From Synergistaceae bacterium (GTDB lineage Bacteria; Synergistota; Synergistia; Synergistales; Aminobacteriaceae): a stretch of DNA of 64,000 nucleotides. The DNA is taken from positions 1 through 64,000 of the forward strand of contig JAHDLC010000005.1 in assembly GCA_018436595.1 (NCBI GenBank). Reading direction: 5' to 3'. Position 1 is the first letter of the stretch, and each line of letters starts with the position of its first letter. Positions 28,314 to 46,524 of the stretch are shown piece by piece. The notes below the pieces were generated by a model that was not told where the DNA came from, ran no database searches, and saw only the letters and a list, made by a program, of their open reading frames with translations. The translations under genes and the position numbers were made by a program.

Positions 28314-29933
28314 TTAAAAGCGAGTTGCCTCAATCACATCTTCCCAAAAATATTTTAAAAGATCCCTCAGATTTATATTCTCTACTTTTTCACGTGCTTT
28401 AAACGATATATTCACAGCATTTTCGATATTACGCTCCTTGCTAATACCTGGAACAGAACCGCTGGAAACAGAAAGATTCATGCATTCGGCAAAACGCACT
28501 TTGTCACACCGTTGCAGTTCGTCTGAGAAGAAAATCCTTTCTTTGGAATGTACGTTCAAATCATTAATGTCTATTACATAACCGTGTAAATTGCTATTCT
28601 CCGATTTTGAAAAAAAGAGAACTACAGCATTTGCATCATTGATGCCATGTGAAAATAACAAATTCAGTTCATGTTGTATCTGTTCATCTAAAAATGCCAC
28701 TTTGTTTGAAGAAAATCCACTGCGCATCATTTCTTGAATAAGTTCACTCAATCCAGTTCGGAAGGAGTCCATTTCTTGAATCGACACAAAAAGACCTCTG
28801 ATCATATCAGGCTTTAGAGGAACTGACTGAATCTCAAACTGACCCACAAATCCCTCAAAAAATCTGTAGAGATTTTCAGGAACCGCCAAAGGCAGGAGTA
28901 TTTCAGCATTATGAAGTGGCGTTTGCAGACGGATTTCATTTTTGTGTAGAAGTTGCCAATGATCTTCACTGAGAACAGAAACTTTGAAATCGCCAATTTG
29001 GGTAGCATCACTATTGACTTGTCCCAACATGAGATACCTAAGCCCATCAAATGATGAATATCTATTCTTGATTTCTTTGAAAACGCGTTCCGATAGCTCT
29101 CTTTGCTGTTTTTGCATGTCGGTTGACTGACTTAGTTCATTTGAGGATGGGGCTTCCGTCTGAATTGGATTATTGCCTCCCCCTTCAGGAGAACCTTGAG
29201 GCGTCGATGATTCTAATTTCTGCTTGGGTGGCGAAGCCAAATTTTTGGAAATTTCTAGGTCCACACCCTGAAAAAAAACCAATAAAGATAATCCTATTAA
29301 AAATAAAACAATAAGAGCACCCCATAAGTATATTTTTTTATTCCGTAATTTTGACTCCAGGCCTGTAACTGAGTCTGATTGGGTGCTGGCTGGTATTCTC
29401 TTTCTCTTTTTTTCCCAATTGTTATCAACACAAAGGTACGCATGATTTGCATCCAATTCGGGGAAAACGGATGGAGAAACAATTTTTTCCGACATAGATA
29501 ATATCGACTTTTCCAAGACCTTTTTCCCCTCCAAGTACTTCAGCCTTTGGTCTCTATTTTTCGCTATTCCAATTACATCGTTGCTGTTCCAGATCATGGC
29601 AACAAGATTTTGGGGAGTTCCGCTTTCATTAAGTAACTGCTCATCTATGAAGGCAGCCACAAGAGCAATATTATTTCTTCCCACAAGGTCTTTCCCAGGA
29701 ACAATAAAACCAAGCAACTGCTTTTTCTTGCTCCAGGGCAAAAAAATGATACCCACCTTATTGTCAGTGGGTCGTTTGAGCGCCGGAGAAAGATCAAACA
29801 AGTCGACAATACGGCGATACTCTTCGTCAGTCTTTTCCAAATCAACGAGAGGGGAGCAAAACTTAACTCCCCAATCATCACTGTATAGCCCTTTCTCACC
29901 GGATTTGAAAACAAAGTAAGATATCTTATTCAT
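28314..29933 (-). CDS. Single-helix membrane protein of the island GTPase operon
   Basis: A 539-residue protein, last gene of a four-gene operon, starting 9 bases after the GTPase stop. Residues 1-200 look globular and cytoplasmic (SYFVFKSGEKGLYSDDWGVK at 5-24; IIFLPWSKKKQLLGFIVPGK). One membrane helix lies at about 204-224 (YLWGALIVLFLIGLSLLVFF). A low-complexity Ser/Pro/Gln/Gly stretch follows (about 235-275), then about 260 residues of extracytoplasmic domain with mixed alpha/beta character. I recognise no family. The architecture suggests a protein linking the cytoplasmic face of the GTPase complex to the outside. Base composition is AT-rich compared with the helicase operon next door. 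Confidence 0.7.
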   Translation of the reverse strand: MNKISYFVFKSGEKGLYSDDWGVKFCSPLVDLEKTDEEYRRIVDLFDLSPALKRPTDNKVGIIFLPWSKKKQLLGFIVPGKDLVGRNNIALVAAFIDEQLLNESGTPQNLVAMIWNSNDVIGIAKNRDQRLKYLEGKKVLEKSILSMSEKIVSPSVFPELDANHAYLCVDNNWEKKRKRIPASTQSDSVTGLESKLRNKKIYLWGALIVLFLIGLSLLVFFQGVDLEISKNLASPPKQKLESSTPQGSPEGGGNNPIQTEAPSSNELSQSTDMQKQQRELSERVFKEIKNRYSSFDGLRYLMLGQVNSDATQIGDFKVSVLSEDHWQLLHKNEIRLQTPLHNAEILLPLAVPENLYRFFEGFVGQFEIQSVPLKPDMIRGLFVSIQEMDSFRTGLSELIQEMMRSGFSSNKVAFLDEQIQHELNLLFSHGINDANAVVLFFSKSENSNLHGYVIDINDLNVHSKERIFFSDELQRCDKVRFAECMNLSVSSGSVPGISKERNIENAVNISFKAREKVENINLRDLLKYFWEDVIEATRF

Positions 29934-29942
29934 AACAGAACC

Positions 29943-32831
29943 TTATTTCCAAGGACTAGGCGGAATAGTTCCTTTAGGATCGAATCTTATATGGAGTTTA
30001 TTTCCGCCACTAGACAACTCGGCTGTTAATCGCTCATATCCAAAGAGACCTGTTGCATAAACTGTACGATCAAAAAATAAATGATCTTCAAAGACATCAT
30101 CCTCGAATACTTTAATCTGTATTTGTGAGTTTACTTTCCATACGAATTCGCATCCCGCATTAAATTGAGGGCGCTTCGTATCGTTTTTAGTATCGGTTAC
30201 TCCCTGACTGCTTCCATCGATGAATATCTCTGCATGTGTATCAGGGTTTTTTTCTAGCCATCTTCCATCTTCAGGGAAATACCCCTCGACTATCGTTATT
30301 CTTGCAGGAATACCGTTTGAAACAGTCTTTACAAAATCTCTTACCATAGAAACCTCCGAATTTTTTGTCGATGCAGGCCATCTATTAATGAACGCATCAA
30401 GGTTTCCCATTAGTGTGTTGATTGAACCTGAAGAGGAAGAATGTTTCACTTTGTCGAAAGACGCTTTGCAATAAAGAAATTCCGCTTCTTCCAGAGAGGA
30501 CAAGCTTTCACGCCATCGTTTCGCCACTTCTTCCCGCCTTTTCCCAAGCTGTAGTGAATCGGTCATTGCTTCAAAACCGTCGATGGTGCGTCCGATATTT
30601 ACGTAGCCTTTCTGTACTTCATCGAAGGCTACCGCAAAATCTCTATCTGCAGCCCTCGCTCCGAAACGCCTATCAATTAAATCCAATTCATTCATAAGCA
30701 TGCGCTTAAAAACCGAAGCAAAAGAATTATTCAGTTCAGAAGCACCCTCCGGTAATTCTTTTAGCCTTGCTACAAACTTAGGAACGAAATGCTCAAGCTC
30801 TTTTATTGAGGAAACCTTGTTAAGCATGGTGGTTGTTGAGGCAACAGACTCACTGATAAGCAGAGATATCTTTTTTTCCACGGTATCTCTGTATTTTGCC
30901 GGCATATCAGGATGGGCAGCCAAACGGTCTCGTAACACCTCAATAGGCATGTTGCTATGATTCAACTGAGCAATAAACTTGGCATACAGATCGTCTATCA
31001 CTTGTTCAAGATTCCGCCGTTCTTCTCCAGATACAAGGACATTTCCAATCTTTTCTTTGATAAGCAGTATACCCTTTTCCGCATCATCAAGGTTCTGTGC
31101 CTGGACGCTCCATGCCCGAACCAGCTTAGTAGTTAAGTCCTTTACAGCAACGTCTATCCGAGCTTGCTCTTTCTCCGGTATTCCGGCCTCTCCTCTCTTG
31201 CTTTTCAAGAAAACAATACCACTTTCCGCATCTGGTTCTTGAGCAGCTTCTTTTATCCATACCGTCACATTGGACGCCCAAATATCCTTAATTTGCGCAC
31301 TCCATTTTTCAATCGACATTGCAAGCAGATTCCTTAGTTCGACGGGCAGAAGTTGGTTTTGCATCAGAACTTCAGCGTCATCAATATAGCGAGAAACAAG
31401 GGAAATTTCAGGATTCTGAGGAAGACTTCGCACCCATCCACGCAGGGCGGCGTCGATTTTGTTCATTACACTGTCACGCCATTCTTCCGGAACGCTAACC
31501 AGGACCCCAAGTTGTTTTGATATAAGCGCATATAATGTCAAAGGATCAACACTTGATTCTATTTCCTCAGCAGTAGTAACCAATGTGAGAGCGGTAACAT
31601 AATAATAGTCCGCCTCTTTTACCTGCCTGTAATTACTGGGAGCTATTTCAAAGAAGTCACCATGATTCAGGTACTCCTCGGTTTTCCTTGCAGATTCTTT
31701 AATGAACTCCAAATTTCCTTGCGGCTTTTGAGTCATGTCAACAGCTTGCAGAGCAGGCTGCAATTCTTTAAAAAGGTAGGCTTCATATTGTTTGTAATAA
31801 GTTCCTATTATTGAGTCAGCATCATCCCCAGCTCGTAAAAATGGCGGCAAGATGATAGTAGGAGGCAAAAGACGCGATTTAAAAGAATCAAGGGCTTTGA
31901 TAGCATCCTCGTATTGATAAACAGATATGTAGCGCTCAGCACTGTCCACAGCAGAACGCCACCGCTGATTATCGATGCCTGCGCTCACCGCGATTGTTGC
32001 GCTCCAAACAAGAATGAGTGCCGCAACAGCCAGCTTGAAATACAAACGGTCGCGTTTTTTCCCGGCAGAAACCATCCTTTCGAACATATCTTCCATAGGT
32101 TCCAGGACATTCTCCGGCTCATAAGAATCCGAAGATGGCGGTGTTTCACTATCCTTCCACTTTCCCATAGCAATTGACTTATACGTGGCAACATTTCTGC
32201 CTTTTGAAAAGAAAAACGAAGAGTCAAAAAGCGAATCGCCTTTTCTGGTGTCACGAATATTTCTCATCAAGCCAACTATTCTTTCCAAAAGATCCTCTTT
32301 CGTTACATCAGAGGGTATAGCATCACATTTGGTAAATATTACAAAGATGGGTATATCGGCACGTTGTCTTCCATCGTTTTTGTTCCTTTGTCTTAACAGG
32401 TCAATAGATGCAGTGAAAGCATTTGTTTCCTCAGTCGTTCTTCCATTGCCTTTATAAACATCCTCCGCAGAGATGAAAAAAAGAGCTCCATCCGCAGAGC
32501 TTAAGTCATCCGCTATTCTGGTCGTTTCTTTTTCCCAGCTGGCAGCATCGGTAGAAAATCCTCCGGGTATATCATGAAGCTCTACATCGATATTCAAATT
32601 CCGACCTACACTAAAACTAAGATCCTTCCGCTCGACTGTACCGGAAACCACCCTCCCCTCTTCAAAAAGCGTTTTTGTGATTCTTGAAATCTCCGCAACC
32701 GCAACAGGCTTTGGTGAAATTGCATACTTGCCTTTTCCCAGTTCCACAAGATGAAAGTATGAGGCTAAGAAAACAGTCTTCCCAACATGGGTGGCACCCA
32801 TTATTGCGAGTTTGAACTTTTTCTTAGGCAT
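29943..32831 (-). CDS. Giant membrane-anchored GTPase, island copy
   Basis: A 962-residue protein starting at ATG 32831, seven bases after CAGGAGG; this start overlaps the upstream stop by 8 bases. The N-terminal domain is a TRAFAC-type GTPase: Walker A GATHVGKT (12-19), G3 DIPG (87-90), and G4 TKCD (167-170). One membrane helix follows (about 263-285, FKLAVAALILVWSATIAVSA). The next ~560 residues are almost entirely helical with regular heptad-like repeats (LTLYALISKQLGVLVSVPEEW style). The last ~110 residues form a beta-rich domain ending FDPKGTIPPSPWK. The chromosomal gene at 40887-43592 has the same plan throughout, with closely aligned motif positions. The order GTPase, helix, helical stalk, beta cap recalls TssM/IcmF, but no type VI genes are present. 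Function unknown. Confidence 0.82.
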   Translation of the reverse strand: MPKKKFKLAIMGATHVGKTVFLASYFHLVELGKGKYAISPKPVAVAEISRITKTLFEEGRVVSGTVERKDLSFSVGRNLNIDVELHDIPGGFSTDAASWEKETTRIADDLSSADGALFFISAEDVYKGNGRTTEETNAFTASIDLLRQRNKNDGRQRADIPIFVIFTKCDAIPSDVTKEDLLERIVGLMRNIRDTRKGDSLFDSSFFFSKGRNVATYKSIAMGKWKDSETPPSSDSYEPENVLEPMEDMFERMVSAGKKRDRLYFKLAVAALILVWSATIAVSAGIDNQRWRSAVDSAERYISVYQYEDAIKALDSFKSRLLPPTIILPPFLRAGDDADSIIGTYYKQYEAYLFKELQPALQAVDMTQKPQGNLEFIKESARKTEEYLNHGDFFEIAPSNYRQVKEADYYYVTALTLVTTAEEIESSVDPLTLYALISKQLGVLVSVPEEWRDSVMNKIDAALRGWVRSLPQNPEISLVSRYIDDAEVLMQNQLLPVELRNLLAMSIEKWSAQIKDIWASNVTVWIKEAAQEPDAESGIVFLKSKRGEAGIPEKEQARIDVAVKDLTTKLVRAWSVQAQNLDDAEKGILLIKEKIGNVLVSGEERRNLEQVIDDLYAKFIAQLNHSNMPIEVLRDRLAAHPDMPAKYRDTVEKKISLLISESVASTTTMLNKVSSIKELEHFVPKFVARLKELPEGASELNNSFASVFKRMLMNELDLIDRRFGARAADRDFAVAFDEVQKGYVNIGRTIDGFEAMTDSLQLGKRREEVAKRWRESLSSLEEAEFLYCKASFDKVKHSSSSGSINTLMGNLDAFINRWPASTKNSEVSMVRDFVKTVSNGIPARITIVEGYFPEDGRWLEKNPDTHAEIFIDGSSQGVTDTKNDTKRPQFNAGCEFVWKVNSQIQIKVFEDDVFEDHLFFDRTVYATGLFGYERLTAELSSGGNKLHIRFDPKGTIPPSPWK

Positions 32832-33951
32832 TTTTTTCCTCCTGAGCATTGAGTTTTCTTCTTATCATATTAATGAAAGGAGCAAACAAAACCAAAGGGA
32901 TCCAGCGTGTTGGTTTAAAGCAATATAAAAGCGAAAAAACAATTATTGCAAGAACGACTACGCCTATTAACTGTTTTATGGAACCAGAAAGGTTGGGAAA
33001 CCATTTATTCAAAATTTGCTCTGTAATCCTTACAGGGGCAGAAATTACACGTTCAGTTGCATCGGCTGTTGAAACAATAACAAGTTCATCTACAATCCTA
33101 TTAAAATTTCTGACCACTTTTCCACCCTCGTCAATTACAAAATTCGGTGCAAAACGCACTAGCCCAGCAAAGACAATTATAGTTGTATATGTTGGATATT
33201 TTTTTGCCAGTTTCTGCAGAGTATCTAAGACACGTTTCATACTCTCAAGACCCACAGGACCATATTTTTTTAAAATACTTTCTCCAAAGGAAATCGCATC
33301 ACCGGCATTAAAAACCTTGTGAAAATTGCCCACTTCCTGGTATGCGGAGGCAGGAATTTTAATGCCCACTGCTTTTAACTTATCCAAACGAGATACGACG
33401 TCATTGAACTCCGCAGCGTTCGAAGCCATTCGGTGAGAAACAGTTCCTAAAGAAGTCCAGAGATCTTCTTTTTTTGCAATTGCGTAGACGTTATCCACGA
33501 CGCCCTCCCCGTATCGCGCTCCAACCAGCAGACCTCGTGGTCCAATAACTTTTACAATATCATCAGCATTCGATGATCTCGCCACTTTCTCAGCAACTTC
33601 CGAAAGGGCCGATCCTAAACGGCGCTGCGCCGAACTTAATTCCAAAAAATCGTCAAAATGGCGAGAACCCGGCAGAAAGCCGACTTTACGCGCTATTTCA
33701 GCAGCATCTTCTGTTCCTTTGGGAGGCAGGTTTAATAAATCCCCGTTTTTTCTTATGATTGAATCAAAATTATCCCCTTTTCTTAAAAGAACAGCTTCAT
33801 CAATGTTTTTCCCCGCTTTTCTGAAGGAGCTACTCAAAATATTTGAAAAGAGATCATCAATCTTGCTTAAAAATGCAGCTTCTGACTTTACACTTGTGAA
33901 CAAGAAGAGAAAAGCAATTAAGACCGCAGTTTGGATCTGAATTCTTCTCAT
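32824..33951 (-). CDS. Secreted/membrane protein of the island GTPase operon
   Basis: A 375-residue protein with an N-terminal signal-like segment (IQTAVLIAFLFLFTSVKSEA, residues 5-24), a helical middle, and C-terminal hydrophobic segments at about 243-262 (TTIIVFAGLVRFAP) and 325-360 (LIGVVVLAIIVFSLLYCF, then WIPLVLFAPFINMI), ending in a basic tail. GAGGGGG lies eight bases before the ATG. It overlaps the GTPase start by 8 bases and follows the 698-residue gene after 28 bases. The fold appears to be repeats of short helices with recurring 'KYGP/GARYGEG' turns. Related wording occurs in the 690-residue protein at 46525-48597 of the chromosomal locus. No known family recognised. Confidence 0.7.
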   Translation of the reverse strand: MRRIQIQTAVLIAFLFLFTSVKSEAAFLSKIDDLFSNILSSSFRKAGKNIDEAVLLRKGDNFDSIIRKNGDLLNLPPKGTEDAAEIARKVGFLPGSRHFDDFLELSSAQRRLGSALSEVAEKVARSSNADDIVKVIGPRGLLVGARYGEGVVDNVYAIAKKEDLWTSLGTVSHRMASNAAEFNDVVSRLDKLKAVGIKIPASAYQEVGNFHKVFNAGDAISFGESILKKYGPVGLESMKRVLDTLQKLAKKYPTYTTIIVFAGLVRFAPNFVIDEGGKVVRNFNRIVDELVIVSTADATERVISAPVRITEQILNKWFPNLSGSIKQLIGVVVLAIIVFSLLYCFKPTRWIPLVLFAPFINMIRRKLNAQEEKNA

Positions 33952-33979
33952 AGAAAAACCCCCTCGTTCTTCTTAATTC

Positions 33980-36076
33980 CTAATGCCCGGACTGCCTTTT
34001 TTCAATAAATCCCAATATAGAATTAAAACCATAATAAAAGACCACTGGTTCAATCACCATTTCCCGTAATATCACGTTTGGATTACCGGATGATAATAAG
34101 TACATTTTGGGTAACTCTTTTAATGCAAGAACCCCTTTTTCAAAAAGGCTTAAGCTCGTTTTTGGTACTGCTCTAAAATAGCGGACTCCGCTTTTTAAAA
34201 GGTTTCCTGCCGTTCTATCTCCTCTGAACATAAAAATTTTCGATATTGCATACCTTACACCGCTTGGAATTTTTGTAGCTATATTGAGTGCCCTGCGATA
34301 AAACCTCCCAAAACTTTTCGCGGATTGTTCTCCAAATTCCTGAATTAGACCTTTTGAGAGGCCTTTCGCACTTCTCTTCACCCCTTGTTTTACTCCCTGT
34401 TTTATCGGCTCAGTTATGGCTTTTGAAGTTCCAAATGACAAAATTATCATGGATATTTCATACACATCCCAAACAAAAAAAGCCATATCGCTTACGGTAG
34501 GCGTTTTCCCTTTTTTTACACAATCATAAATAACAGTCACAAGGTCATGACCTGGCATAAATTCTATAAACGCAAGTTTTTCCTTGTCGATGGGGTATCC
34601 TGTGAAGGGCTCCGGGTCAAATTTTTTAAGAAGATAATCCGAGCGGTCTGACCAATCAGGAAAATTGTATGTATTACCGGAGGTATCGGAATAAAACAAG
34701 AACATCAGAAGATCTCGTGCTCGAGAAATTTTCCCTAAAATCACATTTTGGACATGACGGTTGAAACGGAAATGATCAGCTGCCATTAAGCCCGCTTCTT
34801 TATACTTGATTATTGCATCAAGAACATAGGAAGCATCTTTATCCCATCCATCCCAGTCCCGAACCACTAAAGTCCCAATATTGATAAAATTGCCGTAATA
34901 CATCGAACAGACTTCCTCGGCAGGTTCACCATATTTGTACAGCAATTTAAAAAAATATGGGTCGGCAAAAGGCGATAATGTTAAAATTTCTCCTTCAGAA
35001 TCAACTGAACCTTCGATCACATTTCCCACAGATTGTGCAAGGCGCGAAACCTCCTCGAGGGAAAGGCTATTTAAAAACCCCGTAAATTCTGCCATGGTAT
35101 CGTTCTCTGCTGCATTTTCTATTTGATGGGCAATAATGCTATAAGCAGTAAAATAGCGTTCGTTCATCGGGCCTGTTAGATTTTTGGAAATCCTAATAAA
35201 AAGCTCTGGGCATATTGATACCGCAAAATACGATTCAGCCCCACACTCATTCAAAACATCCGTCATCCACTCGTAACGTTTGAACAACGCCATCATAGCG
35301 TCTTGTTCTTCAACTGGTAACAACATCGAGAGAACAACTATTTCGCCAGCTGTCTTATTAATATATTCGATGCTGTCCATGCCATGCTCCAACAAAAATC
35401 CAGCCGCATTTGGGTATCTTATAATAGCCTCATAAACTTCCAGAGAAGATTCGGCAAGCATTTCAAGAAAAGTGTTATATCTCACCCGATCATCACGCAA
35501 AACGTCAAGCACATTAAGATAAGCATGGTTGGCATTAAATTCACTAATAAATCTGGCCTCTACTTTTCGCCTGTTTTTCTTCGTAGCATCAAGAAACTTT
35601 TGCAAGCGCGCTTTATATTCAATCTTGTCCGGATCTACTGCAAATGCATTGCCCAAACGCAGCGCAAGAAGAGCGCGTTTCTTTTCATCCCCCACACTCT
35701 TCAATTCATTATATAAATCAATAAAAATCTCAGGTTTAAAAAAGAGGGTGTGATATTCCTCTTCAGGCACTTGGCTCATTGCAAGTAAAGGCGGGAAACC
35801 AAACCGCTCACTCAAAGAGATAACCCAACCTGAATACTTCGGGTACAGCTGGTCCACAACATCAGCGTACTCGGGATATTTTCGCAGCAGATCTTCACGG
35901 TACTCATCTTTGGAGGCTGCGAAGGACTCCTGATCATCAAAAGATGCAGATTCCGAATTCTTCAAATCCGTTTGCACGTCTTCAGAATATTCATATCCAC
36001 TCTTATCATAAGTATAAGTAAACGCTATTTGTGGAAATAAAAATAATAAATAAAAAACCATCAAAGTTTTAAACAT
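33980..36076 (-). CDS. Secreted alpha-helical repeat protein, first large gene of island GTPase operon
   Basis: A 698-residue protein when started at ATG 36076, which has GGAGGTGG seven bases upstream; an earlier in-frame ATG at 36112 lacks such a site. Residues 1-20 form a signal peptide (FKTLMVFYLLFLFPQIAFTY). The rest is a helical solenoid-like chain with phrases such as YPNAAGFLLEHGMDSIEYIN (about 235-254) and FFKLLYKYGEPAEEVCSMYY. Hydrophobic segments near the C-terminus (about 545-565, WDVYEISMIILSFGT, and the last 25 residues) may associate with the membrane. A segment with three QGVK/SAKGL-type basic repeats lies near 570-590. Function unknown; operon position ties it to the GTPase. 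Confidence 0.7.
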   Translation of the reverse strand: MFKTLMVFYLLFLFPQIAFTYTYDKSGYEYSEDVQTDLKNSESASFDDQESFAASKDEYREDLLRKYPEYADVVDQLYPKYSGWVISLSERFGFPPLLAMSQVPEEEYHTLFFKPEIFIDLYNELKSVGDEKKRALLALRLGNAFAVDPDKIEYKARLQKFLDATKKNRRKVEARFISEFNANHAYLNVLDVLRDDRVRYNTFLEMLAESSLEVYEAIIRYPNAAGFLLEHGMDSIEYINKTAGEIVVLSMLLPVEEQDAMMALFKRYEWMTDVLNECGAESYFAVSICPELFIRISKNLTGPMNERYFTAYSIIAHQIENAAENDTMAEFTGFLNSLSLEEVSRLAQSVGNVIEGSVDSEGEILTLSPFADPYFFKLLYKYGEPAEEVCSMYYGNFINIGTLVVRDWDGWDKDASYVLDAIIKYKEAGLMAADHFRFNRHVQNVILGKISRARDLLMFLFYSDTSGNTYNFPDWSDRSDYLLKKFDPEPFTGYPIDKEKLAFIEFMPGHDLVTVIYDCVKKGKTPTVSDMAFFVWDVYEISMIILSFGTSKAITEPIKQGVKQGVKRSAKGLSKGLIQEFGEQSAKSFGRFYRRALNIATKIPSGVRYAISKIFMFRGDRTAGNLLKSGVRYFRAVPKTSLSLFEKGVLALKELPKMYLLSSGNPNVILREMVIEPVVFYYGFNSILGFIEKRQSGH

Positions 36077-36140
36077 AGCACCACCTCCAGTGAGTTTGTT
36101 CTGGGCGTTCAACGAACCACAAGAAAAGCCTTTTGGTCAT
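36069..36140 (-). CDS. 23-residue leader ORF of the GTPase operon
   Basis: A short frame, MTKRLFLWFVERPEQTHWRW and three more residues, begins at ATG 36140 with AAGGAGG five bases upstream and ends at a TAA that overlaps the ATG of the 698-residue gene (stop 36069-36071, next ATG 36074-36076). Strong ribosome binding site plus stop/start overlap suggests translational coupling. Three Trp and one His codon cluster near the end, but no attenuator hairpin is visible, so amino-acid attenuation is not claimed. Confidence 0.4.
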   Translation of the reverse strand: MTKRLFLWFVERPEQTHWRWCYV

Positions 36141-36541
36141 AGAACCCTCCTTGTGTGCCGGGAACTAAATACACTAGAAAATCAGTCGAAATGTTTTGCG
36201 GTTTATGACGCACTTGAGGTAGTTAAACAAAAATCCTTCTCTACCGCAGGATTCTTGGAAATTGAATGGACTCTCGGCTCTCACATCAGGAGTATACCTT
36301 AATTCTCGAAATTTTAGGAGTGTTGGTCTTCTGAATAACTCAAAAATTCACCCTAAACAGAGTCCTCCTTCCTTACTCACTGGTCAGGACAAATGCAATC
36401 AGCCAATTTCCTGGTGGTTCTTCTGCGTCAACAGAGTTTTTTTCAGCTTCTGAATTAATCTGAACACTATACGAAAAATCGGTCTTGCTTCTTGAACGTT
36501 GGTGTTCCGTAATGTAGAATAAAACCGTTGCGGGGGTTGAT
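36141..36541. other. Non-coding region inside the island's right end
   Basis: AT-rich sequence with no supported gene. It should contain the promoter of the leftward GTPase operon, though I could not assign -35/-10 boxes with confidence. Together with the repeats and tRNA fragment downstream it forms the right attachment region of the island. Confidence 0.5.
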
Positions 36542-36567
36542 GTGGTGTTACAAAGTGGTGTTACAAA
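36542..36567 (+). repeat. Two abutting 13-bp direct repeats, possible integrase arm sites
   Basis: GTGGTGTTACAAA occurs twice without a spacer (36542-36554 and 36555-36567), followed by AACATCAC. They lie about 70 bp inside the tRNA-Ser scar. Paired short direct repeats at this distance from the core are typical arm-type binding sites of tyrosine recombinases. No integrase gene is visible in the window to support this directly. Confidence 0.5.
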
Positions 36568-36635
36568 ACATCACAATGGGCTTTTGAAGAATGCAGTGTT
36601 TTCAACAACTTATAAAAAGAAAGGAAAATGGTAAT

Positions 36636-36655
36636 GAATCCCTCCTTCTCCGCCA
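36636..36655 (+). other. tRNA-Ser 3'-end fragment, probable attachment site (att) of the island
   Basis: The 20 bases GAATCCCTCCTTCTCCGCCA are the T-arm 3' strand, acceptor 3' strand, discriminator G and CCA of a serine tRNA (acceptor CTTCTCC pairs with GGAGAAG). The 100 bases before it contain no GGAGAAG, D-arm, anticodon or variable arm, so only the 3' end is here. A 3' tRNA fragment followed by a terminator is the standard scar left when an element integrates into a tRNA gene; the intact copy should lie at the other end, left of the window. This puts everything from 1 to 36655 inside the element. Confidence 0.72.
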
Positions 36656-36678
36656 TTTTTTTACTTTTATACTGTATC

Positions 36679-36722
36679 AAACGGAGGAAAAGTGACTAAA
36701 CACTTTTCCTCCGTTTGTTTTT
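36679..36722 (+). terminator. Rho-independent terminator, probably of the original tRNA-Ser
   Basis: A perfect 16-bp stem (36679-36694, AAACGGAGGAAAAGTG, with 36701-36716) closes a 6-base loop and is followed by GTTTTTGAT. No gene on the plus strand precedes it except the tRNA-Ser 3' fragment 23 bp upstream. It is best explained as the native tRNA terminator left behind when the island was inserted. Confidence 0.75.
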
Positions 36723-36847
36723 GATAGGCGTATACCGGGAATAGGAGCTGTGGTACAGGCAATACTGCCCTTTTGGTTGTTTCTTTTCCTGCTTTTCGAT
36801 ATCCTATACACGGCATATCCGGCAAATTTTTCAGGGAGGTTGATCTT

Positions 36848-37351
36848 ATGCAAAAAAAGGACCATGCAAATCGCGCAATTGTTTTTTCTGCGGTTTTTCT
36901 TCTCTGCCTGTCGGCTGTCTCCGCATGGGCTTCCGTTTCCCAGGGTCTCGCCGAGCGGCTTGACCTTTTCCGTGACCGGAACTGGGTGTACAACAACGTA
37001 GGCGAGCCGGATTCCGTTGACTGGAATACTACCTTCAATGCAGAACTTGAAATGTATAGGATTTCCGGTTCTTCCTACTTCGACTGGTATTTTGTGTCCT
37101 ATGGCCTTGACGGTAGAATTAATGTTTTGGGGCAAATTTACAAGAAGGGGTACATGTCGGGATACGAAGTCTGTGACGAGCTTGAATCCCGGGGAGGTTT
37201 TCCCGCAGGCACGACAGGGCTTGGAAAGATATTCCGGATACAGCACACACGAACGGGAAGATCCATCCGGGTTGCGGTACAGGACAACAAAAAGCTCGGA
37301 CAGACCGTGGTGTACATGCTGACGCAGGATGCCTGGGAGAGGGTAAACTGA
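36848..37351 (+). CDS. Small secreted protein, unknown
   Basis: A 167-residue protein starting at ATG 36848, eight bases after GGGAGG; longer in-frame starts upstream lack a binding site. Residues 8-28 are a signal peptide (NRAIVFSAVFLLCLSAVSAW, cleaved after AWA). The mature part reads as a compact alpha/beta domain of about 135 residues (MYRISGSSYFDWYFVSYGLD; VQDNKKLGQTVVYMLTQDAW). No family recognised. It is the first gene on the chromosomal side of the island boundary. Confidence 0.65.
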   Translation: MQKKDHANRAIVFSAVFLLCLSAVSAWASVSQGLAERLDLFRDRNWVYNNVGEPDSVDWNTTFNAELEMYRISGSSYFDWYFVSYGLDGRINVLGQIYKKGYMSGYEVCDELESRGGFPAGTTGLGKIFRIQHTRTGRSIRVAVQDNKKLGQTVVYMLTQDAWERVN

Positions 37352-37405
37352 CCTATACGAATTAACTGCGGAAATAAAAATTAAAGACCGGAGTATTTCC
37401 TGCTT

Positions 37406-39316
37406 TCACTGCTCAATCGGTTTGTTTTCTTCCGCTCCGTCGTTGTTTCGCTCGGTTTCCACCTTCGCCATCCTCATGAACTCCCTGTTTTCCAGAAGGA
37501 GACCATCGTAAGTTCCGCTTGCTGAAATGCGCCCCTTCTCCAGCATGTATATAACATCGCAATCCTTCAATGTGTTCAGCCTGTGGGCGATCATGATGAC
37601 GGTTTTAGCCTTCGATGCGCTGCGTATGGCGTTCAGGACGGTTTCTTCGGTGGCGCCGTCGAGCGAGCTGGTGGCTTCGTCCAGCACAAGCACTTCCGGG
37701 CTGCGGTACAGGGCCCGGGCCAGGCCGATGCGCTGGCGCTGCCCGCCGCTGAGGCGGACTCCTCTCTCGCCGATGACGGTGCCGTATTGCTCCGGCAGGG
37801 TCTGGATGAAGTCGTCGAGGGCGGCGATACGGGCCGACCGGCGGACCTGTTCTTCGTCGATCCTGTCGTCGGGGATGCCGAAGGCGATGTTTCGGGTGAC
37901 GGTGTCGTCGCTCAGGTAGATATCCTGCGGGACATAGCCGATCGTGCGGCGCCAGGCCCGGATGTTGGCGGGGGCAACGGGCGTGTCGTCAATAAGCATC
38001 CTCCCTTCTTTGGGAATATGCAGCCCGAGGATAATGTCCACCAGGGTGGTCTTTCCCGATCCGGTGGACCCGACGAGGCCGACCACGCTTTCCCTGGGGA
38101 TCTCGAGGTCAAGTCCGTCGATGACGTTCCGTTCTCCCTCAGGGTAGCGGAAGCGGATGTTCTCCAGAACGATGCGGTGCCGGAAGGGTAGTTCTTCCTT
38201 TTCTCCACCTTCTTTGGGGAAGAGGTCAGGTTGTTCGTCGGAAACCAGGTCCTGGTAGAGCCTGTCGAGTATGGCCTTGTTGTAGTAAATCTGCGTGACG
38301 GAGGAGTAGATTTGCTGGAGTGCTGGTATCAGGCGCTTGCCGGCGAAGGCGTAGAGGCTGACCATGGGCACGACGGCGGAAACTTCACCTCCACGGACGA
38401 GGGCAAGGACAACGAAGAGGATGAGCCCTCCGAAGACGATGCTCTCCATGAGGTAGGAGGGCAGCTGCCCCACCACTTTCGCGAACACGTTGAGGTCCGC
38501 GAATTTTCTGGAATTCTCGGCGAACCGGTCCAGAAAGAAGGGCTCCGCGCCGATGACCCTGCTGATCTTGATGCTGGAGAGGGCTTCGGTGGCTGCGCGG
38601 AACCGTTTTTTGTTGGCCTCCATCCGCTCTGCGCCCTTTTGCTTGAGTTTCACCTTGAGGAAATAGTTCAGCGTGCCGTAGACCGTTCCAAGGAAGCCAA
38701 GGGTGACGAGGGTGACGGCGGGGTTTACGGAGAAGAGCATGAAGACGATGACCACAAGTATCAGAATGTTGATCATTGCTTCGAAAAGGGGCATAAGGAA
38801 ACTGCTGGTCAGCTGGTTGATTTCCGACAGGACGTTCTTGCCGAGGTCGCTCGTGTTGTTGATCAGGAAGAAAGCGTAGGGCCTGGAGAGGTAGACAGCC
38901 AGCAGCCGGTTGGAGAGGGTGTAGTTCCTGTTGAGGACGAACCGGGTTTTTGCCCACATGGTGAGGGCGGTGATCCCGTTCGAGAGGATGACGAGGAGGA
39001 CGACGGCGATTCCCAGGGCGGCCATGAATTCCCGTGGGGATGAGAAGGAAAAAGCGGTGTACGCGAGGGTGAGCCACGGGCTGTCCTGTATGGATGCCGG
39101 GTCCATGGCGACGTTGATGAAAGGGAACACGGAGAAAACACCCGCCATCTGGGCAAAGGCGGTTATAAGCCCGGCGAAGAAGATCAGCAGGGCCTGCATC
39201 CGTTCCTGAGGTGTGAAGATTTCATAGAGCTTCCGCACTATGGTTTTTTCTGCGGCAGCTTCGGGTGATGAGCCTGTCGGGTTTCTCTCAACGGTGCCGG
39301 GATGTTCTTCGGTCAC
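37406..39316 (-). CDS. ABC transporter, fused permease and ATPase (MsbA-like exporter)
   Basis: A 636-residue half-transporter that would work as a homodimer in the inner membrane. Residues 40-330 hold about six membrane helices (for example ALLIFFAGLITAFAQMAGVF and ILILVVIVFMLFSVNP). The nucleotide-binding domain (about 370-615) shows Walker A GSTGSGKTT, the Q-loop YVPQD, signature LSGGQRQR, Walker B EVLVLDEATSSLD and the H-loop MIAHRL. The start is GTG 39316, with AAGGA nine bases upstream. Exporters of this kind move lipids, polysaccharide precursors or drugs; the closest in feel are those in surface-polysaccharide loci, but no glycosyltransferase is adjacent. Substrate unknown. Confidence 0.88.
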   Translation of the reverse strand: MTEEHPGTVERNPTGSSPEAAAEKTIVRKLYEIFTPQERMQALLIFFAGLITAFAQMAGVFSVFPFINVAMDPASIQDSPWLTLAYTAFSFSSPREFMAALGIAVVLLVILSNGITALTMWAKTRFVLNRNYTLSNRLLAVYLSRPYAFFLINNTSDLGKNVLSEINQLTSSFLMPLFEAMINILILVVIVFMLFSVNPAVTLVTLGFLGTVYGTLNYFLKVKLKQKGAERMEANKKRFRAATEALSSIKISRVIGAEPFFLDRFAENSRKFADLNVFAKVVGQLPSYLMESIVFGGLILFVVLALVRGGEVSAVVPMVSLYAFAGKRLIPALQQIYSSVTQIYYNKAILDRLYQDLVSDEQPDLFPKEGGEKEELPFRHRIVLENIRFRYPEGERNVIDGLDLEIPRESVVGLVGSTGSGKTTLVDIILGLHIPKEGRMLIDDTPVAPANIRAWRRTIGYVPQDIYLSDDTVTRNIAFGIPDDRIDEEQVRRSARIAALDDFIQTLPEQYGTVIGERGVRLSGGQRQRIGLARALYRSPEVLVLDEATSSLDGATEETVLNAIRSASKAKTVIMIAHRLNTLKDCDVIYMLEKGRISASGTYDGLLLENREFMRMAKVETERNNDGAEENKPIEQ

Positions 39317-39790
39317 TGAATCACGTCCTTTTTTCTAAAACTGCTGCACCGGCCTGAGTGCGCAGGGGATGCCGGTTTGACCGGGTGAAGCCGAACGGCC
39401 CTTGCTCTTCCCGCATGTTCACAGGTTCCCGCAGGTGGCGGTGCAGATAAAGGGGGATCAAATCCCCTTATTCCAGTTTTTTTATGTTTTCTATTGAGAT
39501 TGTACCTGTATTTAGCCTGAAGAGAGCACAGAAAGAGGAAAAACATTTGGTTCTGAAAAATACTCGCCGGCGGGTTGAGTTCAGCATCAGCTGAAGGCTC
39601 AAGGAATTCACTTTCACGCCGAAAATTGACCATGGAGCCTGATCTATCTATCCTTCAGAAATGAAAAATGCCCTCTCCAGAGAGGTCAAATGTTGTATTA
39701 TTACCCTTAGGAAAGATGTACCGGTCCCTGCGGAGACGGCGCGGTCATGAAAGCAAGGCGAAGGGTTCATTTCTGAAAGGAGTGCGTTTG
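39317..39790. other. Divergent promoter region
   Basis: Non-coding 474 bp between the leftward ABC exporter and the rightward TRAP binding-protein gene. It holds a small hairpin at about 39453-39466 (GGGGATCAAATCCCC) followed by a T-rich run, and an AT-rich patch near 39694-39702 (TGTATTATTA) that may be a -10 region for dctP. No gene is supported here. Confidence 0.4.
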
Positions 39791-40798
39791 ATGCGAAAGG
39801 TTGTCCTGTCCGTTCTTCTTGGTGTCCTTTTCTTCATTCCGGCTTTCTTTTCCGGATGCGCGGCTGCGGCGCCGGAAATGACGCTCCGCTTTTCCGGTCA
39901 GTTTCCTGAAGGCCATACTGCAACCATGCTCATGCGTCAGGTTGCGGAGGAAGTCCTGGCGAAGACCGGGGGGCGCATTGAAATCAAGGTTTTCCCTGAC
40001 AACGAACTTGGGGATTACACACTAGTCTACGAAGAATTGATCCGGGGATCCATCGACATGGCGGCAATCACCGTTCCGAGCCAGTTCGATCCGAGGCTCG
40101 AACTGGCCTATATCAACTGCATTGTGCGTACTTTTGACGGTGCCAGGAAGCTTTTCGCCCCTGACGGGTGGCTTTTCAAAAAGATGGATGACCTTCATTC
40201 CCGTCTTGGTGTGAAGCTTCTCGCTTTCCAGATGGAAGGCTTTATCGGCATCGGGAGCACGAAACCCGTAAATGAGCCCCTAAATCCCGGGGTGAAGAAG
40301 GGCATTCTGCTCCGCATCCCGAACATGGAGGTTTTCAAGCTCGGTGCAGAAGCCATGGGATACAGGACCATAACCATCCCATGGGACGAAGTGCGGGGAT
40401 CCCTCCAGAACGGTTTCGCGGAAGGTGTGAACGGCATGACGCCGACAGCGGCCTACTCAATGCTGAAGGGGGTTCTGAAATACTGGTACGATCTCCGGTA
40501 TTCCATGGAAAACCTGAACTACATGATCAGCCTGAAGACCTGGGAAAAGCTGAAGGAAGAGGACCGTGCCGTCATCGCGGATGCCTGTTCGAAGATCACC
40601 GCAACCAGCATCGATCTCGCCGAAAAGGACCAGCAGAAGCATATTGATCTCCTGAGGGAAGCCGGAGTTGAAGTCCATACCTATACGATGGATGAGCTCG
40701 CCCCCGTTTTTTCCAAGGTATCGGCCACATGGGACAGGCTGGCAGATAAGCTGTCTGCGGAGCTTATCGACGAATTCATCAAGGAATACGCCGAATAG
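39791..40798 (+). CDS. dctP: TRAP transporter solute-binding protein (DctP family)
   Basis: A 335-residue protein starting at ATG 39791 with GAAAGGAGT upstream. The N-terminus is a signal with a possible lipobox (FFSGC at about 19-23). The mature sequence has the DctP pattern: MTLRFSGQFPEGHTATMLMR, then IEIKVFPDNELGDYTLVYEE and IDMAAITVPSQF, with RIPNMEVFKLGAEAMGYRTI and GVNGMTPTAAY later. Such proteins capture carboxylates or amino-acid-like solutes in the periplasm and hand them to the DctQ/DctM membrane subunits. No dctQ or dctM is adjacent, so it is an orphan binding protein or serves a transporter elsewhere. Confidence 0.9.
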   Translation: MRKVVLSVLLGVLFFIPAFFSGCAAAAPEMTLRFSGQFPEGHTATMLMRQVAEEVLAKTGGRIEIKVFPDNELGDYTLVYEELIRGSIDMAAITVPSQFDPRLELAYINCIVRTFDGARKLFAPDGWLFKKMDDLHSRLGVKLLAFQMEGFIGIGSTKPVNEPLNPGVKKGILLRIPNMEVFKLGAEAMGYRTITIPWDEVRGSLQNGFAEGVNGMTPTAAYSMLKGVLKYWYDLRYSMENLNYMISLKTWEKLKEEDRAVIADACSKITATSIDLAEKDQQKHIDLLREAGVEVHTYTMDELAPVFSKVSATWDRLADKLSAELIDEFIKEYAE

Positions 40799-40827
40799 TA
40801 ATTTTTTTAGAACCTGGTGGATAAGAG

Positions 40828-40863
40828 AAGGACGGAACCCGTTGTCGGGGTTCCGTCCTTTTT
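40828..40863 (+). terminator. Rho-independent terminator after dctP
   Basis: A perfect 13-bp stem: AAGGACGGAACCC (40828-40840) pairs with GGGTTCCGTCCTT (40848-40860) around a 7-base loop, then TTT follows. It lies 30 bp after the dctP stop and separates it from the convergent GTPase gene. Confidence 0.85.
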
Positions 40864-40886
40864 CGCTGTCCGGGAAAGTCGAAAGA

Positions 40887-43592
40887 TCAGTTCCAGGGTG
40901 AATCCGGAAGTTCGATGTCCAGCTTGACGGTAATGGAATTCCCGTTGTTCTTGAGGGTCCCGGTGAGCTTTTTGTAGCCGAGAATTCCGCCGGCGTCCAC
41001 TGAGACGTTGAATACTTCCTTGTCCGAACCCAGGATGCCCCCTGTTTCCATTCCCACAAGGGTGAAGCGGGATCCGATGTCCCAGGTGAATTCATGCTTT
41101 TCGCCGAAAGAGGGACGTACTTCGTTATCCACCGTTTTGGTCTCCAGCACCGTCTTGCCGTCTTTTTTCAGAAGGATTTTCATGTCGGGAGTATCAAGGA
41201 GCGAATCCACTGCGGAGAAATCACCGCTCACAATAGTCAGAACGGCTTTGGCCCCATTGTGAACCGCGTCCAGAAGAAGGGATGCCTTCTCCGCTTCCGC
41301 AGCCTCTTCCGAATCAGGCCAAAGAGCGGCGAAAGCCTTCAGCATTTGCGCGACCGGCAGTATTTCCTCTTTGTTGTTGGAGGATTTGAGACCTTCAAAA
41401 GCTGCTTTGCAGACTGAGAAGTGGGATCGCCGAAGTTCGTCGATCTTTTTGCCCTGGAATTCAGCCGCTTCGGCTACCGCGCCGTTTCCGAAGGCACCGA
41501 GCCCGGTCTTTTCCAGTCTTGCGGTGAGGGCTTCCACGGAGGAGGCAAACAGTTCCTTTGCCCCTGCAAAATCTTTCTTTTCCGCAAGGGCGGACCCTTT
41601 TTCAGCGATTTTTTCCCATTCCGAAGCTACGAGCCTGGAGAAGGTCTTTTTGAAACTGGCTGCCACATCGTCCTTGCCGGCAGGGTAGTCAGTCCAGGGG
41701 AGCTTCAGGTCAGGCAGCCTGGCCCCAAGGGCTTCCAGGGAGCTGGCAGCCTCTATTCCGGCGGCGATTTTTGAGGCTTCATTTTTTGCCAGGGCGAGAA
41801 TTCGGTCAGAGAGTGTTTTCCTGGCCCCCTCAGGCATGTCCGGGTAACGGCCAAAAACGCCCTTAAGTGTTTCGATGTCTGCGGCGGGGTCCCCGGCAAG
41901 GGTTTCGGCAAGGCGGATATACTGCCCATTCAGGGCGGAAGACAGGGTTTTGCCGATGTTTTCAGGAAGATCTTCCCTCTTCAGAAAGGTCAGGATTTTT
42001 CCGATCCCTTCTTCCGGCGAAAGGGCGGAAGCCTCCTGGACCCATTTCGCTCCTCTGTCGGTCCACTTGTCTGCAATCATTTGTTTCCAGGCAGTTTCCC
42101 TTTCTGCAATGCTTTTTTTCAACTCATCCGTGGCGTTCGGGTTGCCGGAGAGTTTTTGTGCAGATGCAAGAAAGTCCTCTACGGACTCGATTCCGGCATC
42201 GGGGGAAAGCATATCAGCCCAGAAGGCGAAGAGTTCCCCTGCTTTCCGGGCTCCCTCGCTCTTCCACTGTTCGGGAAGCTTCGGCAGGAAGCCGAGCCAG
42301 CTTTCCACAAGGTTGAGGGCTTCACCGGAATCGCTGGCCCCGTCGGCGCTCCCCGCCGTTTTGCCGTGGAGGGCCTGCCCTGCCTCAAAGTACCATCGGA
42401 GAGAATAGATTTTGTCAAAGTTGGCCTGGTTTATTTTGCGGAAGTCCGGGTTGGCGAGGTACTCCTCCACTTTTTCCGATGCATCCAGATACTCTGCGGA
42501 TTTTACATCAGGCATTCTGGATGTGTCTATTTTCTCTATGAGGGGCTGCAGGCTGGTGAACTGTGCCTGTTCATAGGCTTTCAGGATTCCGCTGCGAAAG
42601 GATTCTTTGTCCGCCCCGCCACGCAGGACCGAGGGAACGAGAGGGATGGGGTCAGGGAAGATATATCCCTTTCCGTGTGAATCCACTACCTTCAGGGCGT
42701 CTGCATATTGTGAGGCTGCCACAAGTTTCCGGGCCTCGCTTTTCGCGCCGCTCCACCTGTAGTGGTCCATGCCCCAGGTTACCGCCGTGGAGACCACAAG
42801 AAGCGCTGCTGTCGCTATAACGGCTGATCTGATCTTTTTTCGTTCGTGCTCCTGGCTGCTCATCATTTTGTAAAGTTCCTCCATTGGTTTTATGACATTC
42901 TGCGGTTCATATTTTTGCGGCAGTTTTTTTGGCTCAGGCCAGACCCCGATGGGAATAGCCTTGAAGGCGTTGACGGTCTGCCTGTCACCGGAAAGACAGG
43001 CAGAAAGAGCCGGAAATTTCTGACCTTCTTTGACCAGGATCGCGGTCATTTTGTCAGTAAGCTGCTCAACGGAAACGTCAGGAACCGTGTCTCCCTTTGT
43101 AAACAGGAAGACTACCGGTACTTTCCCCCCGCCGGTCCACCGTGAAGCCGTGTTCTCAAAAAGAAAGGAAAGGGCTTCCAGGAAGGTGCCGTTTTCCCGA
43201 AGAAACCGCTCGGGGTTTTTCATGAGTTCGTCGGCCGGAATGAAGAAGAGCACTCCGTCTACGGATTTCAGTTCGGGCAGGAACTTGTGGTCTTCCCAGT
43301 CGCGCCTTTTTTTGGACCCGCCTTCCGGAACTTCGACAAAAAGGATATCCATGCCGAGCGAATCGACAGAATAGGAGAAGAGATTTTTTCTGGCCTTTTC
43401 TTTTACGGGAATCTGCTGTCTGAAAAGCGTCCGGATAATGCGGCCCGCTTCATCCTCCGCTTCCGGGGTATTGAAAGATACGGGTCTGCCCTGACCGAGG
43501 TTTGTGATCAAATTGAAATAGGAACCTAAAAAGACGGTTTTTCCGGAGCCGGATGCGCCCATAAGTGCAATTTTGTACTTTTTGTTGGCCAT
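40887..43592 (-). CDS. Giant membrane-anchored GTPase, chromosomal paralogue
   Basis: A 901-residue protein. It is a paralogue of the island GTPase (29943-32831), with motifs at nearly the same residue positions: Walker A GASGSGKT (12-19), FVEVPEGG (85-92) at the G3 site, G4 TKGD (165-168), one membrane helix (about 255-275, AVIATAALLVVSTAVTWGMD), a long helical region, and a C-terminal beta domain ending LDIELPDSPWN. Shared phrases include the FL(A/G)SYF stretch, GVLFFIPADE versus GALFFISAED, and E(N/P)...(V)(L/I)(E/K)PME before the membrane helix. The G3 Asp is replaced by Glu, which may change hydrolysis. It stands alone, convergent with dctP. The possible partner is the 690-residue protein at 46525. 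Confidence 0.82.
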   Translation of the reverse strand: MANKKYKIALMGASGSGKTVFLGSYFNLITNLGQGRPVSFNTPEAEDEAGRIIRTLFRQQIPVKEKARKNLFSYSVDSLGMDILFVEVPEGGSKKRRDWEDHKFLPELKSVDGVLFFIPADELMKNPERFLRENGTFLEALSFLFENTASRWTGGGKVPVVFLFTKGDTVPDVSVEQLTDKMTAILVKEGQKFPALSACLSGDRQTVNAFKAIPIGVWPEPKKLPQKYEPQNVIKPMEELYKMMSSQEHERKKIRSAVIATAALLVVSTAVTWGMDHYRWSGAKSEARKLVAASQYADALKVVDSHGKGYIFPDPIPLVPSVLRGGADKESFRSGILKAYEQAQFTSLQPLIEKIDTSRMPDVKSAEYLDASEKVEEYLANPDFRKINQANFDKIYSLRWYFEAGQALHGKTAGSADGASDSGEALNLVESWLGFLPKLPEQWKSEGARKAGELFAFWADMLSPDAGIESVEDFLASAQKLSGNPNATDELKKSIAERETAWKQMIADKWTDRGAKWVQEASALSPEEGIGKILTFLKREDLPENIGKTLSSALNGQYIRLAETLAGDPAADIETLKGVFGRYPDMPEGARKTLSDRILALAKNEASKIAAGIEAASSLEALGARLPDLKLPWTDYPAGKDDVAASFKKTFSRLVASEWEKIAEKGSALAEKKDFAGAKELFASSVEALTARLEKTGLGAFGNGAVAEAAEFQGKKIDELRRSHFSVCKAAFEGLKSSNNKEEILPVAQMLKAFAALWPDSEEAAEAEKASLLLDAVHNGAKAVLTIVSGDFSAVDSLLDTPDMKILLKKDGKTVLETKTVDNEVRPSFGEKHEFTWDIGSRFTLVGMETGGILGSDKEVFNVSVDAGGILGYKKLTGTLKNNGNSITVKLDIELPDSPWN

Positions 43593-46164: not shown

Positions 46165-46497
46165 TTACTTCCTGAACTTGACCGCCGTCCCGTAACCGAT
46201 CACTTCCGCCGCTCCGGAAGAAACGCTTGTAGTGGACAGCCGGAATCCGAGCACAGCATCTGCGCCTGATTTTTGGGCCTCTTCACTGATTCTGGACATT
46301 ACCGTGGAAACCGACTGGTCGATCATGGCCCTGTACTGGTTCAGCTCTCCCCCGATGGTCCAGTTTTTCAGATTGGAAGAAACGTCCTGGACTATTGATT
46401 TCGAGAGGCAGCACGACGCGGTTACGCACCCAAGGAACTCATACTCTCTCCCGGGCAAAGTGTCCACTGTGAGAATTGGTATGGTGGTATTCTGCAT
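46165..46497 (-). CDS. YbjQ/UPF0145 family protein
   Basis: A 110-residue protein starting at ATG 46497 (GGGAG six bases upstream); an in-frame ATG at 46521 is the alternative. The sequence matches the YbjQ family: EYEFLGCVTASCCLSKSIVQD, then GGELNQYRAMIDQSVSTVM and a C-terminal GADAVLGFRLSTTSV...EVIGYGTAV. The usual length is about 105 residues. The family forms pentamers and is annotated as a possible heavy-metal-binding protein, without firm function. It follows the 690-residue membrane protein within 30 bases and is read with it. Confidence 0.85.
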   Translation of the reverse strand: MQNTTIPILTVDTLPGREYEFLGCVTASCCLSKSIVQDVSSNLKNWTIGGELNQYRAMIDQSVSTVMSRISEEAQKSGADAVLGFRLSTTSVSSGAAEVIGYGTAVKFRK

Positions 46498-46524
46498 TTT
46501 TTCTCCCGTCCGTTTTTTCATGGT

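What the first reader, a model, noticed from the sequence alone, without database searches (positions are those of the whole stretch)
28314..43592. Two paralogous giant membrane GTPases, one in a mobile island and one in the chromosome
The island protein (29943-32831, 962 aa) and the chromosomal one (40887-43592, 901 aa) share every domain in order with motifs at nearly the same positions: Walker A at residues 12-19, TK(C/G)D at 165-170, one membrane helix near 255-285, a ~550-residue helical stalk, and a beta-rich C-terminal domain ending PxSPW(K/N). Both sit beside genes for secreted or membrane-anchored helical proteins. GTPase, helix, stalk and beta cap in that order resemble TssM/IcmF, but no type VI genes occur. 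A trans-envelope GTPase complex that is also carried on a defence-rich island may be a new defence or secretion system.
Basis: partly seen in the sequence, partly recalled or inferred. Interest (0 to 1): 0.88.

Follow-up and report, generated by a model that had tools for sequence, protein, structure and literature searches.

The report
Trans-envelope DO-GTPase capped by C2 domain
A bacterium of the family Synergistaceae carries two related giant membrane proteins, each with a GTP-driven switch inside the cell and a long arm ending in a lipid-binding-type domain outside the inner membrane; they are a new membrane-spanning form of a known but untested family of switches predicted to act in conflict or envelope stress, not type VI secretion parts.

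Summary
The two proteins are homologous along their whole length, and the GTPase, the stalk and the cap each match on their own (stalk E 1e-36, cap 2e-14). The GTPase belongs to the DO-GTPase2 family (PF19993: 31.3 bits against a cut-off of 27; profile comparison 98.1%). The cap is a C2 domain by sequence and by predicted fold. With one membrane helix, the stalk and C2 cap should lie in the periplasm. TssM/IcmF is not supported: the match is weak, covers 85 columns of the GTPase only, and the stalk and cap do not match.

The family was found only in Synergistaceae: 13 of 188 Synergistota genomes, none in plasmids or phages. The island copy is the third gene of a tight four-gene, AT-rich foreign operon beside defence genes. 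Its downstream partner (cytosolic domain, helix, periplasmic tail) follows the GTPase in six further genomes, none of them in a comparable defence island. The chromosomal copy is present in all five genomes of its genus, beside a YbjQ gene and an anchored helical protein, which fits envelope upkeep better than phage defence.

Best reading: an envelope-sensing DO-GTPase switch, a membrane-spanning variant of the GTPase-centric systems of Kaur et al. 2020. The GAP1 partner defining those systems was tested and not found. Function is inferred.

The parts
29943..32831 (-). Island DO-GTPase, 962 aa: cytosolic GTPase, one membrane helix, helical stalk, C2-like cap
32067..32831 (-). GTPase domain, residues 1-255 (GATHVGKT 12-19; DIPGG at 87; TKCD at 167; YEPENV at 237)
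   Evidence: PF19993 31.3 bits, cut-off 27; profile match 98.1%, E 6.4e-14, to Synergistaceae DO-GTPases; positions
31974..32030 (-). Single membrane helix, residues 268-286, basic residues on the GTPase side
   Evidence: hydropathy
30312..31973 (-). Helical stalk, residues 287-840, predicted periplasmic
   Evidence: model pLDDT mostly 70-90; homologous to the chromosomal stalk
29946..30311 (-). C2-like beta-sandwich cap, residues 841-962
   Evidence: Foldseek 2nq3 E 1.3e-4, target TM 0.69; Pfam C2 in 3 of 11 members, best E 4.6e-6
28314..29933 (-). Operon partner, 539 aa: cytosolic N domain (about 200 aa), membrane helix 203-221, periplasmic tail
   Evidence: relatives directly beside the GTPase in 6 other loci, start of one more at G044:C25; no Pfam match; helix
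32824..33951 (-). 375 aa protein with signal peptide and C-terminal membrane helix (327-345); no relatives found in the fetched loci
33980..36076 (-). Secreted helical protein, 698 aa from the ATG at 36076 (TTG start gives 710 aa); relatives in L037 and L035 beside the GTPase
40887..43592 (-). Chromosomal paralogue, 901 aa, same domain order; G3 reads EVPEG instead of DIPGG
40890..41246 (-). C2-like cap of the chromosomal paralogue (residues 783-901)
   Evidence: BLASTP to the island cap, E 2e-14
46165..46521 (-). YbjQ family protein, 118 aa, upstream neighbour of the GTPase with nothing between in G021 and G023
   Evidence: PF01906 81.1 bits, cut-off 23
46525..48597 (-). 690 aa helical protein with signal peptide and C-terminal membrane helix, kept beside the GTPase in the genus
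   Evidence: 87%, 85% and 70% identical in L031, L032, L042

Best explanation
Each protein is an inner-membrane GTP switch of the DO-GTPase family. The GTPase sits in the cytosol (inferred from motifs and charge), one helix crosses the membrane, and about 550 residues of helical stalk carry a C2-type domain into the periplasm. The most likely mechanism (inferred) is that the stalk and C2 cap contact envelope lipid or a periplasmic partner, and that a change there is passed through the helix to the GTPase, or the reverse. In the island operon a second single-pass protein, with its own cytosolic domain and periplasmic tail, and two secreted or anchored helical proteins complete the complex; related loci add accessory proteins that share the periplasmic tail domain, or membrane-anchored HSP70s. 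The chromosomal copy, with YbjQ and an anchored helical protein, is probably a resident envelope-stress or envelope-upkeep version. The island copy, foreign in origin, is probably the conflict-type version, a membrane-spanning variant of the GTPase-centric systems predicted by Kaur et al. 2020. Shown: homology, DO-GTPase membership of the domain, C2 fold, operon conservation, lineage limits. Not shown: GTP hydrolysis, topology, lipid binding, any phenotype.
For: PF19993 over cut-off for the island protein; profile match of the GTPase domains to DO-GTPases 98.1%, E 6.4e-14; a membrane-anchored DO-GTPase of a Kaur-type operon (L085) aligns through GTPase and helix, 89.8%, E 1.8e-6. A relative carries two GTPase domains in tandem (L040). 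C2 cap by structure and sequence. Partner conserved in 6 further loci. Membrane-anchored HSP70 genes, one with Sel1/TPR, flank the GTPase and partner in L034, as in the HSP70 theme of PMC7159879. 5 of 5 genus members keep the chromosomal copy, with kept neighbours where the contig reaches. DO-GTPases are tied to membrane stress in PMC11237479.
Against: No GAP1 domain could be recognised in the partner, so the link to the conflict systems rests on the GTPase and on context. No known effector domain lies in the island operon. The chromosomal clade has lost the Gly of the G3 motif, so it may not hydrolyse GTP normally. C2 domains usually act in the cytosol of eukaryotes; a periplasmic one is unusual, and the topology is predicted only.
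Confidence: 0.5

Rival explanations
1. Housekeeping envelope tether: the GTPase-stalk-C2 protein bridges inner and outer membrane to keep envelope structure or lipid balance, with no role in conflict; the island copy is a hitch-hiking xenologue.
For: Chromosomal copy in 5 of 5 genus genomes with kept neighbours; housekeeping neighbours at most other loci (inspection); stalk plus C2 cap suits a tether; YbjQ neighbour.
Against: Patchy across the family (13 of 188 genomes), strong divergence (about 30%), foreign island copy with its own partner operon, DO-GTPase kinship to predicted conflict systems.
Confidence: 0.25
2. Trans-envelope export machine: the complex moves a toxin or effector across the envelope, functionally like TssM although not related.
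For: Trans-envelope layout; in L034 the same strand continues with a HerA/DUF87-like ATPase, a non-specific endonuclease and a YezG-type immunity gene.
Against: Toxin, immunity and ATPase genes were seen at one locus only; no translocase in the window operon; no TssM kinship of stalk or cap.
Confidence: 0.1
3. TssM/IcmF relative.
For: Similar order of parts; hhalign to three TssM 36.7%, E 3.6e-4 over G3-G4; IcmF-related_N weakly in 2 of 11 members, best E 0.014.
Against: GTPase matches DO-GTPases far better; stalk and cap match TssM at 0.6%; cap is C2; one helix after an N-terminal GTPase, whereas TssM carries membrane helices before the NTPase; no PF14331 in the genome.
Confidence: 0.03
4. 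Dedicated anti-phage system carried by the defence island.
For: Adjacent genes resemble DruE, DrmD, type IIG, McrBC, HEC-05 and HEC-07 families; foreign operon.
Against: No PADLOC match for the GTPase above chance or for its partners; no comparable defence island at the other loci; the paralogue is a fixed chromosomal gene.
Confidence: 0.12

Closest known systems
DO-GTPase family, GAP1-N2-type GTPase-centric conflict systems (Kaur et al. 2020, PMC7159879)
   Same: GTPase domain (PF19993), membrane anchoring with extracytoplasmic domains after the GTPase, GTPase followed by a partner gene, tandem GTPases in one member, HSP70/TPR genes at one locus
   Different: No recognisable GAP1, FNIII or zinc ribbon; a giant periplasmic stalk with a C2 cap; limited to Synergistaceae in the collections searched
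TssM/IcmF of type VI secretion
   Same: NTPase, membrane helix, periplasmic helical part, terminal beta domain (architecture only)
   Different: GTPase closer to DO-GTPases, one helix, stalk and cap unrelated by profile, C2 cap, no TssM (PF14331) in the genome
YcjX / DO-GTPase linked to psp operons (PMC11237479)
   Same: DO-GTPase family tied to membrane stress; DUF463 (YcjX) scores weakly in 2 of 11 members, best E 0.04
   Different: Different architecture and neighbours
C2 domains (Itch, cytosolic phospholipase A2, synaptotagmin)
   Same: Cap fold; TKT...P.FNE-like pattern in many members
   Different: Predicted periplasmic and bacterial; acidic loop residues vary between members

Membership tests
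DO-GTPase2 (PF19993) | GTPase domain over the curated cut-off | tested here: met
   Island protein 31.3 bits against 27; L040 41.2 bits; 8 of 11 members match at E <= 1. The chromosomal protein alone scores 15.6, under the cut-off. Family profile against DO-GTPases 98.1%, E 6.4e-14
DO-GTPase2 (PF19993) | Paired or tandem GTPases (38% of systems) | tested here: inconclusive
   Only L040 fuses two GTPase domains; most loci have one
GAP1-N2-type GTPase-centric system | GAP1 partner with GAP1-N2/M domains | tested here: not met
   No GAP1 model matches any of 7 partner proteins at E <= 10; hhalign to the GAP1-position protein of L085 0.1%, but that comparison uses one sequence which itself matches no Pfam GAP1 model
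GAP1-N2-type GTPase-centric system | FNIII-repeat component | tested here: not met
   No fn3 match in the scanned operon proteins
GAP1-N2-type GTPase-centric system | Membrane-bound components with extracytoplasmic domains; HSP70 theme | tested here: met
   Membrane helices and signal peptides in the island operon; membrane-anchored HSP70 genes at L034 only
TssM/IcmF | IcmF-related NTPase domain (PF14331) | tested here: not met
   Best E 0.014 in 2 of 11 members, 12.2 bits in L034 against cut-off 25; hhalign 36.7% over 85 columns
TssM/IcmF | Homologous periplasmic helical and beta domains | tested here: not met
   hhalign of stalk and cap to three TssM 0.6%; no TssM among the 50 Foldseek rows shown
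TssM/IcmF | Encoded within a type VI cluster | tested here: not met
   No PF14331 match in the whole genome
C2 domain | C2 beta-sandwich fold | tested here: met
   Foldseek 2nq3 E 1.3e-4, target TM 0.69; 3w56 target TM 0.77; Pfam C2 in 3 members, best E 4.6e-6; the island cap alone 17.5 bits under cut-off 22
C2 domain | Calcium-binding acidic loop residues | tested here: inconclusive
   Acidic residues present in L038 and partly in the island copy, reduced in the chromosomal clade, by inspection of the alignment
Known anti-phage systems (PADLOC) | Match to a catalogued defence protein | tested here: not met
   No match for P0001, the partner, 32824, 33980 or 46525; one near-chance ZacA match for P0002 (13.8 bits, E 0.008)

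The most novel reading that the evidence does not exclude
A bacterial trans-envelope signalling machine in which a cytosolic GTPase controls, or is controlled by, a periplasmic C2 domain held on a 550-residue stalk that reaches the outer membrane: a GTP-gated lipid sensor or tether, existing in a resident and a mobile conflict-type version.
Probability: 0.25. Interest if true: 0.75.

Novelty: new variant of a known kind. Interest (0 to 1): 0.5.

Why it matters
DO-GTPase conflict systems are predicted but, in the papers found here, untested. A form that puts a C2-type domain on a long periplasmic arm gives a concrete, assayable idea of how such a switch could sense the envelope, and the pair of resident and foreign copies in one genome lets upkeep and conflict roles be separated by gene removal.

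Tried and rejected
(1) TssM kinship: three TssM from plant-symbiont plasmids compared; rejected for stalk and cap, weak and partial for the GTPase. An earlier profile ('A3gtp', E 5.9e-47) was inflated by the extra N-terminal GTPase of L040; it was rebuilt without that domain and only the latter is used. (2) GAP1-N homology of the partner: a motif likeness seen by eye (F.TS.G...G..D..GR) did not survive profile comparison against L085 or the A5 family. (3) Homology between the secreted proteins 33980, 46525 and 32824: none by hhalign. (4) The single-sequence model of the partner was too poor to search (mean pLDDT 36). (5) Relatives in viral contigs, plasmids and phages: none. (7) The rpoC neighbour of the 36773 orthologue in G020 suggested an empty site, but rpoB and rpoC are intact together elsewhere in the window's genome, so that junction is not used as the empty site.

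Full report
What is there. The window is from a Synergistaceae genome: a MAG contig titled Synergistaceae (L004) has the same 10,498-base contig and match position as a genome listed as of the same genus. Two minus-strand genes encode 962 aa (29943-32831) and 901 aa (40887-43592). They align end to end (27%, E 1e-101) and each part aligns separately: GTPase 9e-39, stalk 1.4e-36 (132 bits; best of 200 shuffles 24.3), cap 2e-14. Stated motifs are confirmed within two residues. So the paralogy is real and covers every domain.

Architecture. Hydropathy gives one helix after the GTPase, with basic residues on the GTPase side, so the GTPase is expected in the cytosol and the rest in the periplasm (inference). 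The model (three sequences, mean pLDDT 69, stalk mostly 70-90) shows a P-loop-type alpha/beta domain of low confidence, a long all-helical stalk and a beta-sandwich cap. Foldseek identifies the cap as C2 (2nq3, E 1.3e-4, target TM 0.69; 3w56, target TM 0.77), agreeing with Pfam C2 in 3 of 11 members (best E 4.6e-6) and weak synaptotagmin matches of the profile.

GTPase family. The island protein passes the DO-GTPase2 cut-off. The family's GTPase domains match DO-GTPases from other Synergistaceae operons at 98.1% (E 6.4e-14), a dynamin-like control at 0.9%, and TssM at 36.7% over 85 columns only. Stalk and cap do not match TssM (0.6%). One relative fuses a second DO-GTPase in front (L040). The chromosomal clade has PEGG or a worn motif where the others have PGG at G3, so its hydrolysis may be altered (inference).

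Neighbours. The island operon is tight: 33980-36076, 32824-33951, GTPase, 28314-29933, with gaps of 29 and 10 bases and an 8-base overlap (coordinates). Its GC is 0.40-0.43 against about 0.54 for the chromosome and 0.61 for the adjoining defence genes, and synteny with G020 resumes at 36229 (91% identity). The partner 28314 family sits directly beside the GTPase in six other loci; G044 keeps only its start. The periplasmic tail of the partner shows a modest profile match (71%, E 4e-5) to accessory single-pass proteins at related loci, which also match one another (95.9%). The first secreted protein recurs at L037 and L035. L034 has HSP70 genes with a membrane segment on both sides, then on the same strand a HerA-like ATPase, a non-specific endonuclease and a YezG-type immunity gene; this was seen once and is a lead only.

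The chromosomal copy. All five genomes of the genus keep it. In G023 the order anchored helical protein (46525 family), YbjQ, GTPase is read directly from the sequence, and G021 shows the same order; the window and G020 have a beta-lactamase-like gene in between. Few defence genes are this regularly kept, which argues for a resident envelope role (inference).

Distribution. 13 of 188 Synergistota genomes hold the family, five genera of one family; three more show weak stalk-only matches. None was found in plasmids, phages or viral contigs. The one genome-collection scan used short peptide patterns and found one relative, so absence from other phyla is not shown. In the tree the island protein does not group with the chromosomal clade of its own genus but sits on a long branch whose placement in the backbone is open; this argues against a recent duplication.

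How it most likely works. A DO-GTPase switch anchored in the inner membrane reads, or acts on, the periplasm through its stalk and C2 cap, together with a second single-pass protein that carries a cytosolic domain. The resident copy probably serves envelope stress or upkeep; the island copy probably a conflict-type version. Kaur et al. (PMC7159879) describe GAP1-N2-type systems with membrane-bound GTPases carrying extracytoplasmic domains after the membrane segment and an HSP70 theme; the present family fits that picture in the GTPase, in membrane anchoring and, at one locus, in HSP70, but GAP1 and FNIII were tested and not found, so it is not filed as a member of those systems, only as a DO-GTPase. 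The Pfam GAP1 models also miss the GAP1-position protein of L085, a Kaur-type operon, so the GAP1 test is weak.

Verdict. The finding is real. The TssM lead is not supported, the defence reading is possible but unproven, and the thing is a new architectural variant of a known GTPase family.

Noticed in passing
window 3646-28218: Defence-type cluster: HEC-07-like (3646), HEC-05/GmrSD-like (6772), McrBC with EVE domain (9653, 8605), UvrD-like helicase (12146), DruE-like 2122 aa helicase (14254), type IIG enzyme (20628), DrmD-like SNF2 helicase (25378). The last four have GC about 0.58-0.61 and look like one mixed Druantia/DISARM-like operon.
   Followed up: partly
L034:451-13188: Two membrane-anchored HSP70 genes (one with Sel1/TPR after the membrane segment) flank the GTPase and partner, followed on the same strand by a HerA/DUF87-like ATPase, a non-specific endonuclease and a YezG-like immunity protein.
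   Followed up: partly
L075, L077-L081, L083, L084, L086: A recurrent Synergistaceae operon: dynamin-like GTPase of about 757 aa, one or two small DO-GTPase2 genes, and a family starting FRFxTRTxxxDYRVF followed in most members by a membrane helix. Not described in the papers read.
   Followed up: partly
L085:7300-17001: Operon like the Kaur GAP1-N2/HSP70 type: membrane DO-GTPase with SH3 domains, a 778 aa protein in the GAP1 position, a second DO-GTPase, an fn3 protein, and HSP70 with a vWA domain; the GAP1-position protein matches no Pfam model.
   Followed up: partly
window 46165-46521: YbjQ gene beside a C2-capped GTPase; the Pfam YbjQ_2 model, named for C2 domain-containing protein 5, also scores weakly here, a curious pairing.
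   Followed up: no
L031:5777-6028 and G000:C29:3598-12191: In G020 rpoC lies next to the 36773 orthologue, while in the window's genome rpoB and rpoC are adjacent on another contig: a rearrangement or an assembly fault in G020.
   Followed up: partly
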